Below, piece after piece: positions 6,916 through 11,699 of a DNA stretch of 64,000 bases (position 1 is its first letter; each line of letters starts with the position of its first letter). The translations under genes and the position numbers were made by a program. The stretch is from Candidatus Gastranaerophilales bacterium (lineage in GTDB: Bacteria > Cyanobacteriota > Vampirovibrionia > Gastranaerophilales > Gastranaerophilaceae), in NCBI GenBank assembly GCA_944323035.1, contig CALUQY010000001.1:129131-193130 (forward strand), read 5' to 3'. A model generated the notes under the pieces. It had not been told where the DNA came from and made no database searches. It was given only the letters and a program-made list of their open reading frames with translations.

Positions 6916-6936
6916 GTGAACAGTAGCGAGGAGCTT

Positions 6937-7011
<75 letters not shown>

Positions 7012-7025
7012 TTTAAAAGATAATA

Positions 7026-7055
7026 AAAAGCAAGGGGTTGTCCCTTGCTTTTTAT
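7026..7055 (+). terminator. Rho-independent terminator after tRNA-Met
   Basis: AAAAAGCAAGGG, loop GTTGT, CCCTTGCTTTTT: a near-perfect stem followed by a T run, 15 nt after the tRNA. Because it is symmetric it may also serve the secreted-protein gene (7087-7581) arriving on the minus strand. Confidence 0.85.
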
Positions 7056-7086
7056 TAAATATTTTATATTATAAATACGTTGTGGT

Positions 7087-7581
7087 TTATAATGTGCGAT
7101 AACCCCGTTCTATAGGACTAGAATATTGTCTACGCGGCATATTTTTATATCTTTTATAACTTACAATTTTCTTATTATTAAATTTTAATTCACGGTATAC
7201 TTTTTTGTAATGCCTAAAAACCGGCAAATTTTTATATGCGTGATAACGCGAAGTAATTAGAACATCCTGCCCCAAGGGTTTTAAAGAAACTGAAAATGTA
7301 GCTTTTGCAAACCGAGAGGTTGCCCAATTTTCACCCCCACCCCAGTAACCAAGTAATGAAAGGTCATTATAATCAACAGTATAAACATGCCTGCTACCAT
7401 CCATTTCCCGTGGCGTTACGACTCCGTCATACGCTTTTATTAAATCCGTGACAGTTTGCTCAACCTCCCAAATAGAGGCATTTAAGACGACACATTTGTG
7501 CGTGTCGCTATCATCCCAAGGTGCCGCAAATACAGGACTTGCAAAAAATAATAACGCCGCTAAAATAAATATCTTCTTCAT
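7087..7581 (-). CDS. Secreted protein of unknown function
   Basis: 164 residues with a clear signal peptide (MKKIFILAALLFFASPVFAA, cleavage after AFA/A). The mature part is a mixed alpha/beta, basic protein (VEQTVTDLIKAYDG, RYHAYKNLPVF). I recognise no domain. An AGGAGG-type ribosome site (read on the minus strand) lies just upstream of the ATG. It converges on the tRNA-Met terminator and stands apart from the flanking XRE gene, which is transcribed divergently. Confidence 0.7.
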   Translation of the reverse strand: MKKIFILAALLFFASPVFAAPWDDSDTHKCVVLNASIWEVEQTVTDLIKAYDGVVTPREMDGSRHVYTVDYNDLSLLGYWGGGENWATSRFAKATFSVSLKPLGQDVLITSRYHAYKNLPVFRHYKKVYRELKFNNKKIVSYKRYKNMPRRQYSSPIERGYRTL

Positions 7582-7744
7582 ACTTCCTCCTATACGAAAT
7601 TTTAATTAACTATTTATATTAAATATATTACCATTGTGATTTGCTTTGTGAATAAACCATTTAAACTATTTTTAGGTGTAAAAATTCATATTTATTATTA
7701 AATACTTACTGGTTATCTTAACAGCAATAAATGATAATATTATT

Positions 7745-8086
7745 ATGAACGATAAGTCTTTCAAAAAGGGAATCGGCAATAGAATAAAAAGTTATAGAAA
7801 GCTAAAAGGTTTAACCCAAGAACAATTGGCTGAACTTATGGACTTCAATACGAAATCTATTTCATTGCTTGAAAATGGTCATAACTACATTGCTCTTAAC
7901 AAAGTTCCAAAACTTTGCAATGCATTAGACATAAAACCCTATCAGTTATTTATCTTTGACAAAAGAAATAACAAATCAGAAAAAATTCAGGATGATATTA
8001 TAGAATTGTTAAACACTATGGATTCCACAAAGTTGAAACTGGCATATAAACTTTTATACGAACTAAATAACTTTCACCTCAAGTGA
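7745..8086 (+). CDS. XRE-family helix-turn-helix regulator
   Basis: 113 residues. The N-terminal HTH_3 domain (about 8-62) includes RIKSYRKLKGLTQEQLAELM and the recognition-helix region NTKSISLLENG. The C-terminal 45 residues are helical. No ribosome site is visible, and a GATAAT box (7733-7738) ends 6 nt before the ATG, so the mRNA may be leaderless. The last seven codons and stop lie in a 36-bp sequence repeated at 10318-10353. It may regulate the nearby fic segment, but this is inference from position. Confidence 0.85.
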   Translation: MNDKSFKKGIGNRIKSYRKLKGLTQEQLAELMDFNTKSISLLENGHNYIALNKVPKLCNALDIKPYQLFIFDKRNNKSEKIQDDIIELLNTMDSTKLKLAYKLLYELNNFHLK

Positions 8087-8097
8087 TATATTCTATT
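8062..8097 (+). repeat. 36-bp direct repeat, left copy (end of XRE gene)
   Basis: Matches 10318-10353 at 34 of 36 positions in the same orientation. It includes the last codons and stop of the XRE gene. The two copies bracket the fic gene and its neighbour. Confidence 0.8.
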
Positions 8098-8171
8098 CAA
8101 ATTATTTATTAATTTATACTTGACACTGCAATATTTTAAGAGTAAAATTAGTTGCAACATTATACATACAG

Positions 8172-8193
8172 CCGTCTTTACGACGGTTTTTAT
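8172..8193 (+). terminator. Short hairpin terminator
   Basis: CCGTC, loop TTTAC, GACGG, then TTTTTATT. It lies between the XRE gene and the convergent fic gene. Confidence 0.55.
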
Positions 8194-8244
8194 TAGCACA
8201 GCATTTACCCTGTATTTTGTTTTTAAAAAAGGAGGAAATTACAT

Positions 8245-9384
8245 TTATTCCTCAACACTAATGAATTGTTCTCTATAAAGTGTTTCTATGATACCTCTTG
8301 TAAGGTCTTTGCAGATTAAATTGATAACGTATGTGCGTGCATTAGGTTCAGTACGTTGCAATAACCCGAGTTCAACCATTTTGGTTATTAACAAATTTAT
8401 CTGGCGCGGGGTCTTTTCCGGCAATGCCCCTTGAACATCTTTTGATTTAACAATACCCTCAGTTTTATTCAATGCCAATTCTAAAACTTTCTTGTAATCG
8501 TTATTTATAAAATGTAATTCAAGTGCTTTATTTATTGCCGGCATAACAATACGTTCTGCAAAAAATTGTTTGTTCATAAGTTTAGAAACTTTCGACATTT
8601 CTTTGTGCAAACCGCTAAGAACATATTCACACCAAATGGCTTTGCTTTCATCTGTATTTTCATCTGCCACTTGTAACATTTCAAAATACTTGTTTCTATC
8701 TATACAAAAAACAGCGGTAGAGTTTAGAAGATATGCCATATCAAAACCGTATTGACGCAGCATTGAATATGTCAAAATTCTTGACATTCTGCCGTTACCA
8801 TTATCGAACGGGTGTATCCAGGTAAAGCAATGGTGTGCAATCGCAACCTTTAACAATTGCATTTGCATTTTATCATCTTTATTTATCCATTCAATAAGTT
8901 CCTGCATAAAACCCGGAACAGCTGTAGGATTTGGCGGAGTATGTATAGCCTTATTTATTTTAACATAACAAGTTCTGTAACTTCCGCTTTCATTACTTCC
9001 CTCGTTTTTTAAACCTTTGGTAATCAAATAATGTAATTCTTTTAGAAACTTATTTGATATTTTAAACTCTTTATCTTCATCAAAACAGGTGTTCACATAG
9101 TTTATTGCAATTTCAATATTTTCAATCTCTTTTATGTTTTCAAATTCTTTGTTTTCTTCAAATTTATATGTAACATAATCAGAAATAGTTGTTCTGTTAC
9201 CCTCAATCCTTGCTGACTGCAAGCTTTCAATCATGTGAAAAATTTCTTTTACCTGCGTAAATAATCTTGGATTAATCTCTAATGGAGCAATTTGATTTCG
9301 TAAAACTTCAAGTTGCATAATAAGTTCTACCAAATTACTATCAAATGATATTTGAGGTAATTTTAAATTTAATTTATCACACAT
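8245..9384 (-). CDS. Fic-family (AMP-transferase type) protein with winged-helix C-terminus
   Basis: 379 residues. A Fic core with the intact motif HPFDNGNGR (191-199) is preceded by an N-terminal helix carrying the class II inhibitory motif SARIEGN (S57, E61, G62). The C-terminal region (about 285-370) resembles a winged helix (KTPRQINLLITKMVELGLL). Known family activity: transfer of AMP, or another phosphate-containing group, to hydroxyl residues of target proteins, held in check by the inhibitory Glu. The promoter region contains six copies of a TTATTTACGT motif at 22-bp spacing, so autoregulation by the winged helix is plausible. The target is unknown. Confidence 0.88.
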   Translation of the reverse strand: MCDKLNLKLPQISFDSNLVELIMQLEVLRNQIAPLEINPRLFTQVKEIFHMIESLQSARIEGNRTTISDYVTYKFEENKEFENIKEIENIEIAINYVNTCFDEDKEFKISNKFLKELHYLITKGLKNEGSNESGSYRTCYVKINKAIHTPPNPTAVPGFMQELIEWINKDDKMQMQLLKVAIAHHCFTWIHPFDNGNGRMSRILTYSMLRQYGFDMAYLLNSTAVFCIDRNKYFEMLQVADENTDESKAIWCEYVLSGLHKEMSKVSKLMNKQFFAERIVMPAINKALELHFINNDYKKVLELALNKTEGIVKSKDVQGALPEKTPRQINLLITKMVELGLLQRTEPNARTYVINLICKDLTRGIIETLYREQFISVEE

Positions 9385-9396
9385 AATGTTCTCCGG

Positions 9397-9559
9397 TTAT
9401 TTACATCAATATAACATATTATTTACGTTAATGCAAGAATTTATTTACGTAGAAAAGCCTAAAACCATTACAATAATTAAAGTTTAAAATTAAACTAAAA
9501 ATTTTTATTTACGTTGGATTGAAAAATTATTTACGTAAACTAAAAATTTTATCTACATT
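9397..9559. repeat. 22-bp-spaced array of TTATTTACGT motifs (probable operator)
   Basis: Six copies begin at 9397, 9419, 9441, 9505, 9527 and 9549. The spacings are 22, 22, 64, 22 and 22 bp, giving two groups of three. The inner four read TTATTTACGT; the outermost read TTATTTACAT and TTATCTACAT. The copy at 9527 sits in the palindrome TTTACGTAAA. The array fills the gap between fic (minus strand) and the divergent gene at 9638, with every copy on the same face of the helix. It could be a cooperative operator; plasmid-type iterons are less likely because no Rep gene is present. Confidence 0.75.
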
Positions 9560-9637
9560 TAATGCAATTTTCACAAATCTTTACAAACGCTATATAAATA
9601 AAGCATTTATATTACACTTATAGTAAGGAGATTTTCT

Positions 9638-10270
9638 ATGATTACTATTAATACAGCGCAAAATAATTTTAATAATCAACATTCTATAAAATTTGAATCA
9701 CGCATTATACCCACACAAAGCCTGAAAAACACAATATCACACACAATCAAAAATGCAACAATATACGACGAAGAAGCAGGTTATTGTAGAAGCCTTATTA
9801 AAGCACTTAATGCTATTTTAAATGATTCAAAAGATGATGTTATCCAGTTTGAAAAAACAGAAAATACAGGTATTTTATATAAGAGTCCGACAGGTACAGA
9901 TATCTTTGTAAATAAAGAAAAAGTAGCAAGCAATTATATTACAGAGGAACTACAATGTGAGTTTGAGTTAGAGCAATATTACGAAACACCCATTAATGAA
10001 GCCTTGAAGGATGAAGACTTTATGGAGCGAAGTATAATAGATTTTGCCGAGGAAAGATTTCAAAAAAAATTTTATTCTGAAGAGCTAACAGAGCAAGAAC
10101 TTGACCTTATAAACCCGATGATAACAAAAATGCAGAACCTCAACTCACGGGATACTCTAATACATAATAAAATGCTAGGCATGGCTTTCAGAATACAAAA
10201 AAAATTATATGAGAATGCGTTGATACAATTAGAAAAGATACAAAATAAAATTTTTAATCCGAACGAATAA
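9638..10270 (+). CDS. Hypothetical protein divergent from fic
   Basis: 210 residues, preceded by AAGGAG 8 nt before the ATG. The N-terminus is Asn-rich and disordered-looking (about 1-35, with SIKFESRIIP). The rest is strongly helical and acidic, with many Glu/Lys pairs (EELQCEFELEQYYETP, EKIQNKIFNPNE). I recognise no family. It shares the repeat-filled intergenic region with fic, so the two could be coregulated. A partner, antitoxin or target role is possible but unproven. Confidence 0.65.
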   Translation: MITINTAQNNFNNQHSIKFESRIIPTQSLKNTISHTIKNATIYDEEAGYCRSLIKALNAILNDSKDDVIQFEKTENTGILYKSPTGTDIFVNKEKVASNYITEELQCEFELEQYYETPINEALKDEDFMERSIIDFAEERFQKKFYSEELTEQELDLINPMITKMQNLNSRDTLIHNKMLGMAFRIQKKLYENALIQLEKIQNKIFNPNE

Positions 10271-10317
10271 AGCAAATCTCGGCTATCTAAATTCCATATC
10301 GCAGAACATTCTCGGAT

Positions 10318-10353
10318 ACTAAATAACTTTCATCTCAAGTGATATATACTATT
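10318..10353 (+). repeat. 36-bp direct repeat, right copy
   Basis: 34 of 36 identical to 8062-8097 and again reads LNNFHLK-stop, yet it is not attached to a full gene here. Flanking sequences differ beyond the repeat. Confidence 0.8.
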
Positions 10354-10430
10354 AATTTTTGTAAATTTTCTTACTGCAAACATAAAGAATAACTTCTAAA
10401 TTGTCGACACTCCTTTTATAAGGAGCGGCA

Positions 10431-11699
10431 ATGCAAATAGGCGAACCGATGCTCCAGCTGCTTTTGTATAAAAAGGCACAGAGTGAGCAAAATAAAACTA
10501 TTTCACAGAGCAATACAACGGCAGAGCCGGTGGTAACCGGGTCTGCCAGTAATACTGATACTTCTGCGCTAACTTCGGCTGATTATGAAATCGCCAATGA
10601 TTTTGCTATGAATAATTTTAACGAAAGTCAGAAAATCGCCGCAGCGACCTCTAACATTTTGACGGTAAACACTAACGCTGTTACTATTTCCTCGCTTTCT
10701 GCCGCAGAAATTTCACGTATTAAGCAGGTAATTTATGATTTACACCACCCGACAAGTACGCCGGAGCCAGAACCTGAACCGGATACCGGCGAAACTCCTG
10801 CCGGACAAATCGGGTTTATGCATGACTTCGACGATGTTGATGAAATGTTTAATTATATTAACACGATTGATCCGACCGTCACAAAAGAAACCGGACTTGA
10901 CGGTAATGCTCTGTGGCAGTTAACCCAGCGTGACGATTGGGAACGAAACAACAACAGCTTCTTCGGTATAATGAACCACGGGTTTAACCTCATAGATACC
11001 GACAACGACGGTGTTCTATCTTATGAAGAAATCTCCGATTTCGTCGGGGATGAAATGGCTACCGTTTCTGATTATCTGAATAAAGTTCAAGAATATTCAA
11101 ATGAACTTCAAAGAGATTTTAATAATATGACCGCACTGCAAAAACTTGATTTTGCGATTGAAAAAGCACGGGAATATTTTGAACAGGTAGGCTTAACAGA
11201 ACAAATTGCATCGCTTGACAGACTTATCCGTGAGAATAAAATCGGTTTTATGGATCTCAACGAGGGTAAAACTTATGTTGAAGGCGCCGGCGGTTGGGTA
11301 CTGGGTGCATACGCATCACTTGCGGATTCGTCAGGCAACTGGGTAGGTGATGATGACATGTTTTTCGATCAAGACGGTGACGGTATTGACGATTACCATG
11401 GCGGCCTCTGGCTGGATGAATATTATTACTGCGAAAGAAGCGGTTCCACCTGGTATGACCTTGTAGGTACTCTTATCCACGAATTAACCCACGCGACAGC
11501 ATCTTTCCACCCTTCTGATGAAACGGCCTGGGGTGAATATGTTGCATATCAGACAGAAGAAGATTACCTTGATAGTATTGCCTGTGGACAGTGGAGCGGC
11601 AGCGCCGAAAAGTCTGAAATAACTTCACATATTAATACATACTATCCGGGAGAACCGGTTCCTGGCGACAGATGGTGGACTTACGGCGACTACGCATAA
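10431..11699 (+). CDS. EF-hand protein with HExxH metallopeptidase-like motif
   Basis: 422 residues, with AAGGAG before the ATG. A low-complexity Ser/Thr/Asn N-terminus and a Pro/Glu linker (PTSTPEPEPEPDTGETP, about 105-121) are followed by an EF-hand loop DTDNDGVLSYEE and a later D-rich loop DQDGDGIDD. A HELTH motif follows, with ETAWGEYVAY downstream. HExxH with a downstream Glu is the zinc-site pattern of gluzincin-type peptidases. No signal peptide is seen, so export by a non-Sec route or a cytoplasmic role remains open. Peptidase activity is inferred. Confidence 0.65.
   Translation: MQIGEPMLQLLLYKKAQSEQNKTISQSNTTAEPVVTGSASNTDTSALTSADYEIANDFAMNNFNESQKIAAATSNILTVNTNAVTISSLSAAEISRIKQVIYDLHHPTSTPEPEPEPDTGETPAGQIGFMHDFDDVDEMFNYINTIDPTVTKETGLDGNALWQLTQRDDWERNNNSFFGIMNHGFNLIDTDNDGVLSYEEISDFVGDEMATVSDYLNKVQEYSNELQRDFNNMTALQKLDFAIEKAREYFEQVGLTEQIASLDRLIRENKIGFMDLNEGKTYVEGAGGWVLGAYASLADSSGNWVGDDDMFFDQDGDGIDDYHGGLWLDEYYYCERSGSTWYDLVGTLIHELTHATASFHPSDETAWGEYVAYQTEEDYLDSIACGQWSGSAEKSEITSHINTYYPGEPVPGDRWWTYGDYA

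What the first reader, a model, noticed from the sequence alone, without database searches (positions are those of the whole stretch)
9397..9559. Six TTATTTACGT motifs at exact 22-bp steps before fic
Copies start at 9397, 9419, 9441, 9505, 9527 and 9549, giving spacings 22, 22, 64, 22 and 22. Two helical turns per step put all sites on one DNA face. One copy is in a perfect TTTACGTAAA palindrome. The array fills the shared promoter of fic and the divergent gene. The winged-helix tail of this Fic protein, or the nearby XRE protein, could bind it. This would make an autoregulated Fic switch, possibly paired with the 210-residue neighbour.
Basis: partly seen in the sequence, partly recalled or inferred. 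Interest (0 to 1): 0.75.

Follow-up and report, generated by a model that had tools for sequence, protein, structure and literature searches.

The report
Self-repression operator array of Fic enzyme
The repeated DNA words in front of this fic gene are very probably docking sites with which the Fic protein (an enzyme that tags other proteins with AMP) shuts off its own gene; distant relatives keep the same two-group spacing of sites while spelling the word differently, which suggests that each protein and its sites changed together.

Summary
The array is real: six 10-bp sites (four exact, two with 1-2 mismatches), steps 22-22-64-22-22. Random shuffles never come close (6/6 lattice positions against at most 3/6 in 1000).

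It belongs to fic. Fic homologues of 39-100% identity in Gastranaerophilales, Gammaproteobacteria and a Nomurabacterium carry the same layout upstream of fic: two groups of 2-3 sites in the same orientation, step 22 or 23, groups 63-66 bp apart. The letters differ by lineage (ACGTAAATAA, TTGTAGTTAA, TTTGAGATAA, TTCAAGATAA). The XRE gene and the 210-aa gene are not conserved beside fic, and no other 22-bp pair this good occurs in the genome.

The protein is a full-length homologue of CccR (PDB 7xux), a Fic enzyme shown by others to repress its own promoter through its C-terminal winged helix. In the window the near trio interleaves with a probable core promoter (TTGCAT-N17-TATATT).

Best reading: negative autoregulation by the Fic winged helix. 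Shown here: sites, layout, conservation, homology. Inferred: binding and repression. The far trio's role (looping or cooperative seeding) is open. Autoregulation is known; the conserved two-group direct-repeat lattice with changing letters was not found in the literature searched.

The parts
9397..9406 (-). operator copy 1, proximal trio (ATGTAAATAA read in the fic direction); lies over the probable +1 region
9419..9428 (-). operator copy 2, proximal trio (ACGTAAATAA); lies in the -35/-10 spacer
9441..9450 (-). operator copy 3, proximal trio (ACGTAAATAA); just upstream of -35
9505..9514 (-). operator copy 4, distal trio (ACGTAAATAA); 64 bp from copy 3
9527..9536 (-). operator copy 5, distal trio (ACGTAAATAA; within the TTTACGTAAA palindrome)
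9549..9558 (-). operator copy 6, distal trio (ATGTAGATAA, 2 mismatches)
9431..9436 (-). probable -35 hexamer TTGCAT of fic (between copies 2 and 3)
   Evidence: read from sequence; same TTGCAT-N17 layout in L005 and TTGCTT-N17 in L053/L054; not listed by the consensus scan because it has 8 of 12 matches
9408..9413 (-). probable extended -10 hexamer (TG-T-)TATATT of fic (between copies 1 and 2)
   Evidence: read from sequence; TGnTATATT/A kept in L005 and L052-L054
9391..9394 (-). GGAG ribosome-binding site of fic
8245..9384 (-). fic: 379-aa Class II Fic AMP-transferase with C-terminal winged helix, homologue of CccR (PDB 7xux)
9199..9216 (-). codons of the inhibitory-helix motif S57-ARIE-G62 ([S/T]xxxE[G/N])
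8779..8814 (-). codons of the Fic motif HPFDNGNGRMSR (residues 191-202)
8314..8502 (-). codons of the C-terminal winged helix (residues 295-357; recognition helix 326-338), proposed reader of the array
   Evidence: AlphaFold2 model, pLDDT about 90 or more here

Best explanation
The array is the operator of the fic gene. The Fic protein binds it through its C-terminal winged helix, roughly one protomer per 10-bp site, with neighbouring protomers about two helical turns apart. The proximal trio lies on the core promoter (site, -35, site, -10, site over +1), so filling it blocks RNA polymerase and Fic limits its own synthesis. The distal trio, at a fixed 63-66 bp, either raises occupancy of the proximal trio through a Fic-bridged tight loop or is a seeding site for cooperative binding. 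Shown here: the sites, the lattice, its conservation with changed letters, the protein's homology to a proven autorepressor and its predicted winged helix. Inferred: binding, repression, and the role of the distal trio.
For: (1) Layout conserved in homologues. Upstream of fic in 16 non-redundant family loci, 22/23 is the top self-similarity distance in 12 (binomial P about 3e-14) against 1 of 11 other Fic loci. Pooled distances stand out at 22, 23, 44, 64, 65, 86-88 and 107-111, the difference set of a two-group lattice (z up to 17; 95th percentile of shuffle maxima 5.8). An E. coli prophage homologue fetched afterwards has TTTGAGATAA-like sites at -127, -104, -40 and -17: steps 23, 64, 23. 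(2) Sites are conserved blocks among Enterobacterales-side relatives of 91-98% identity. (3) Motif letters track the recognition helix beyond the catalytic domain (partial Mantel p 0.006); for example helix QITYQ goes with TTTGAGATAA and QRTYQ with TTCAAGATAA. (4) Homologue of CccR over residues 6-375: phmmer E 4e-89, TM about 0.8. CccR represses its own promoter through its C-terminal HTH (EMSA, footprint, lacZ; PMC9755527). CccR's footprinted half-site AGATAATCAT occurs letter for letter in the -105 lattice copy of L079-L081. (5) The array occurs once in the 1.9-Mb genome.
Against: No binding data for this protein. CccR's operator was reported as an inverted pair (AGATAATCAT-N26-ATGATAATCT), not a direct-repeat lattice, and its crystal dimer is two-fold symmetric, which fits inverted better than direct sites unless DNA loops or the domains swivel. 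The -35 is weak and the promoter was assigned by eye. Some copies in L005, L050, L055, L058 and L059 are degenerate. Consensus motifs for searches were chosen by eye, and family loci are not fully independent.
Confidence: 0.85

Rival explanations
1. The XRE-family protein at 7745-8086, or another regulator, reads the array and controls fic.
For: A small HTH_3 protein is encoded 0.16 kb downstream of fic; XRE proteins often control toxin genes.
Against: The array persists, with diverged letters, in fic loci whose neighbours differ and lack this XRE gene. Letters change in step with the Fic recognition helix.
Confidence: 0.06
2. The array is a shared, bidirectional operator for fic and the divergent 210-aa gene, which form one functional pair.
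For: The array lies between the two divergent genes, and both are kept in G003 and in the G852 contig.
Against: Diverged orthologues keep both site groups without a 210-aa homologue; 210-aa homologues in G048, G076 and G079 occur in genomes without this fic. The array ends about 80 bp from the 210-aa start. A side effect on that gene is still possible.
Confidence: 0.08
3. Iteron-like replication or partition repeats of a (former) plasmid.
For: Direct repeats near 22 bp resemble plasmid iterons; the family is often on phages or phage-plasmids.
Against: No Rep gene beside the array; it lies in a 213-kb contig between housekeeping genes. The repeats track fic, not a replicon, and lie on its promoter.
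Confidence: 0.01
4. Chance or AT-rich low complexity.
For: The region is about 21% G+C.
Against: Shuffles keeping dinucleotides never approach the observed lattice, and the same spacing recurs in homologues with other letters.
Confidence: 0

Closest known systems
CccR of Yersinia pseudotuberculosis (YPK_0951; PDB 7xux; PMC9755527)
   Same: Full-length homology (residues 6-375, phmmer E 4e-89), Class II inhibitory motif SARIEG, HPFxxGNGR motif, C-terminal HTH. CccR represses its own promoter through that HTH, at sites near -35 and -10. Its half-site AGATAATCAT is found letter for letter in the -105 lattice copy of close homologues L079-L081.
   Different: CccR's operator was described as one inverted pair with a 26-bp spacer. 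Here and in the homologues examined the sites are direct repeats in two groups, step 22/23 and gap 63-66. The letters in the window are ACGTAAATAA, not AGATAATCAT. CccR is a T6SS-delivered effector; nothing here shows secretion.
SoFic (SO_4266; PDB 3eqx, 3zcn) and Coxiella Fic2 (PDB 8cil; PMC10628234)
   Same: Class II Fic enzymes with a C-terminal winged helix; Fic2 binds DNA through it.
   Different: Distant in sequence and fold (TM about 0.5, 14-18% identity). No specific operator known; Fic2 was tested with random DNA.
Doc/Phd and FicT/FicA toxin-antitoxin operons
   Same: A Fic/Doc enzyme whose gene is negatively self-controlled.
   Different: There a separate antitoxin inhibits (and in Phd also binds the operator). 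Here both the inhibitory helix and the DNA-binding domain are in the Fic chain.

Membership tests
CccR-type Class II Fic enzyme with C-terminal winged helix | Fic catalytic motif HPFx[D/E/N]GNGRxxR | tested here: met
   HPFDNGNGRMSR, residues 191-202; Pfam Fic E 4e-18
CccR-type Class II Fic enzyme with C-terminal winged helix | N-terminal inhibitory helix [S/T]xxxE[G/N] | tested here: met
   S57-ARIE-G62, invariant in the homologue alignments
CccR-type Class II Fic enzyme with C-terminal winged helix | C-terminal winged helix | tested here: met
   AlphaFold2 model: helices 295-306, 314-320, 326-338, strands 342-344 and 351-354, pLDDT about 90 or more
CccR-type Class II Fic enzyme with C-terminal winged helix | full-length sequence and fold similarity to CccR (7xux) | tested here: met
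   phmmer E 4e-89 over 6-375; Foldseek E 8e-22, TM 0.78-0.84
CccR-type Class II Fic enzyme with C-terminal winged helix | binds and represses its own promoter | not testable with these tools
   Only indirect: conserved site lattice on the promoter
CccR-type Class II Fic enzyme with C-terminal winged helix | delivered by a type VI secretion system (a property of CccR itself) | not tested
   No T6SS search was made
Phd/Doc- or FicT/FicA-like toxin-antitoxin pair | adjacent conserved antitoxin gene carrying the inhibitory helix | tested here: not met
   Inhibitory helix lies in the Fic chain; the 210-aa and XRE neighbours are not conserved beside fic
Plasmid iteron origin | iterons next to a rep gene on a replicon | tested here: not met
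   213-kb contig, neighbours rsmG, an AAA/TPR protein and a transporter; no Rep domain among the seven neighbouring proteins scanned

The most novel reading that the evidence does not exclude
Fic enzymes with a winged-helix tail as a class control themselves by assembling on arrays of helically phased direct repeats: step 22/23 in two bridged groups here, 11 bp in a second family, 41 bp in a third. Protein and DNA letters co-diversify, and assembly on the array (a tight Fic-bridged loop across the 63-66 bp gap) may also set the AMP-transfer activity, making the operator a sensor of free Fic.
Probability: 0.25. Interest if true: 0.7.

Novelty: new variant of a known kind. Interest (0 to 1): 0.55.

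Why it matters
Class II Fic enzymes are widespread and toxic when unleashed, yet how their dose is kept safe without an antitoxin gene is little known. A site lattice kept across phyla while its letters change gives a simple, testable rule for how these enzymes control themselves. It also supplies natural protein-operator pairs for studying how a winged helix changes specificity, and it suggests re-examining the CccR operator, described as an inverted pair.

Tried and rejected
A viral-contig scan with the three closest sequences found no relative; the wider alignment found three. No close full-length match in phage records. The sigma-70 consensus scan did not list the promoter I assign (8 of 12 matches), so it rests on conservation in L005 and L052-L054. 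The idea of six sites on one continuous 22-bp ladder was rejected: in 23-step lineages the gap is still 64-65, not 69. Hypervariability of the recognition helix was considered; it is more variable than the catalytic part (0.60 against 0.39 of positions) but not uniquely so, so it is not used as evidence. Similarity of the 210-aa protein to the 220-aa ORF upstream of fic in L006 was rejected.

Full report
Observation. The six sites exist at the stated coordinates with exact spacing 22-22-64-22-22. Four are exact TTATTTACGT; 9397 has one and 9549 two mismatches. TTATTTACGT is the only non-trivial 10-mer in the window with four exact copies within 160 bp; no such cluster appears in 100 dinucleotide shuffles, and the six-position lattice scores 6 of 6 against at most 3 of 6 in 1000 local shuffles. 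A search of the whole genome for the 22-bp pair, up to three mismatches, returns the four pairs of this locus and one further weak site; the reversed control pattern also gives one. So no other good target was found in this genome.

The protein. fic (8245-9384, - strand) encodes 379 residues with a Fic domain (Pfam E 4e-18), the motif HPFDNGNGRMSR and the Class II inhibitory motif S57-ARIE-G62. An AlphaFold2 model gives a confident C-terminal winged helix, residues 295-357 (pLDDT about 90 or more). The closest solved structure by sequence and fold is 7xux (phmmer E 4e-89 over residues 6-375, TM about 0.8). The CccR paper itself contains the code 7XUX.

The homologues. In fic-directed reading the sites are: window ACGTAAATAA; L005 TTGTAGTTAA; L006 ATGTAAATAA and ATGTAATTAA; L052 ATGTAAATAA; L055 GTGTAGATAA; L043 TTGTTAAATC; L050 TGCTACATAA; the Xenorhabdus group TTTGAGATAA; L047 and L040 TTCAAGATAA; L058 TTGTATATAA. 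Most share the 3' part ATAA and vary at positions 1-6. All arrays have the same orientation relative to fic.

The layout. Positions relative to the start codon show two groups with steps of 22 or 23 and a gap of 63-66 between the inner sites: window -174, -152, -130 / -66, -44, -22; L006 -211, -189, -167 / -104, -82, -60; L052 -174, -152, -130 / -65, -43; L044 -152, -129, -106 / -41, -18; L046 -128, -105 / -41, -19. Pooled self-similarity in 16 non-redundant loci peaks at 22 (z 17), 110, 64 (z 14.5), 23, 65, 86, 88, 87, 44, 111 and 109; the 95th percentile of the largest z in shuffles is 5.8. 22/23 is the single best distance in 12 of 16 family loci and 1 of 11 other Fic loci. Because the gap stays 64-65 where the step is 23, the sites are not one continuous ladder; the distance between groups is constrained separately. 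An E. coli prophage homologue fetched after the rule was stated shows sites at -127, -104, -40 and -17. In closely related loci the sites are the conserved blocks of the upstream region.

Promoter. In fic direction the window reads TTGCAT-N17-TATATT with TG one base before -10. The hexamers (9431-9436, 9408-9413) lie between the proximal sites, and +1 falls near the last site. The same arrangement is in L005 (TTGCAT-N17-TATATA) and L053/L054 (TTGCTT-N17-TATATT). The -35 is weak and a consensus scan does not list it, so this is an assignment by conservation.

Who reads it. Neighbouring genes differ in the diverged orthologues: a tRNA/mnmA side and a membrane protein in L005, a 220-aa ORF unrelated to the 210-aa protein in L006, others in L063 and L064. 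Homologues of the 210-aa protein exist without this fic. Hence neither the XRE protein nor the 210-aa protein is needed for the array. Motif similarity follows recognition-helix similarity after removing catalytic-domain similarity (partial Mantel p 0.006; motifs picked by eye, modest n). Published work on CccR shows repression of its own promoter (3.3-fold rise in the deletion strain), binding by residues 201-380 but not 1-200, and a footprint AGATAATCAT-N26-ATGATAATCT near -35 and -10 (PMC9755527). AGATAATCAT is present letter for letter in the -105 lattice copy of homologues L079-L081, which ties that footprint to this lattice.

Mechanism. Most likely Fic binds with its winged helix, fills the proximal trio and blocks its promoter. 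CccR's recognition helices are 70 A apart, close to the 71-78 A that 21-23 bp of DNA would span (arithmetic from 3.4 A per bp; inference). A two-fold dimer fits direct repeats poorly on straight DNA but could bridge the distal and proximal groups if the gap DNA folds back; this would explain the fixed 63-66 bp gap (6.0-6.3 turns). That step is inference, roughly one in three.

Comparison and novelty. Self-repression by a Class II Fic enzyme is known from CccR, and Fic-HTH fusions were proposed to self-regulate in 2009 (PMC2686095). The two-group direct-repeat lattice, its conservation over phyla and its changing letters were not found in the papers searched (open-licence papers only). I therefore rate it a new variant of a known kind.

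A wider pattern seen in passing. Two other Fic families in the same bacterial class have their own phased direct repeats at the promoter: an HPY-type family with 11-bp tandem units (ATGGCAAAATA-like; the top distance is 11, 22 or 33 in all nine loci) and a third family with 41-bp spacing around the -10. The window's genome carries one of the 11-bp type (L024). This suggests that phased direct repeats are common for Fic proteins with winged-helix tails, but it was not tested beyond this class.

Noticed in passing
L009, L011-L014, L016, L019, L024 (own genome, G000:C7:22616-23428), L025: A second Fic family (active-site HPY..GNGR, winged-helix C terminus) has 3-5 tandem 11-bp units (ATGGCAAAATA-like) laid over its promoter from the -35 to the start codon; the top self-similarity distance is 11, 22 or 33 in all nine loci.
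   Followed up: partly
L010, L015, L017, L018, L020, L022, L023 upstream of their Fic genes: A third Fic family (374 aa, MKEYKAGTYILHKGYKPF...) has a direct repeat at about 41-bp spacing (TTAAACTTTAATATAA-like) flanking the -10.
   Followed up: partly
window 8062-8115 and 10318-10368: A direct repeat of about 54 bp (87-89% alike), containing the 3' end of the XRE gene, flanks the fic plus 210-aa segment, as if the segment had been inserted or duplicated. G004's downstream-gene locus shows no similarity upstream of the equivalent of window 10398.
   Followed up: partly
L061 (G852:C34, 4178 bp) against window 6935-11112: A genome assigned to another genus holds a 98.4% identical short contig with XRE, fic and 210-aa gene: recent transfer or a mis-binned contig.
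   Followed up: no
L058, L040, L077, L057: The Fic-winged-helix family rides on mobile DNA: beside a P2-type capsid and an integrase (L058), KilA-N and a phage tail gene on a plasmid (L040), terminase in E. coli TUM9757 (L077), a D5-type helicase (L057).
   Followed up: partly
L036 4167-4565: In Xenorhabdus a second, small Fic/Doc protein (132 aa) is encoded just upstream of the Fic-winged-helix gene.
   Followed up: no
L048, L041: The fic gene is truncated or split in these loci; in L048 the upstream site lattice is still intact.
   Followed up: no
window 10431-11699: 422-aa ORF with an EF-hand-like motif and a HELTHA (HExxH) metalloprotease-like motif, present as a longer variant in G003.
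   Followed up: no
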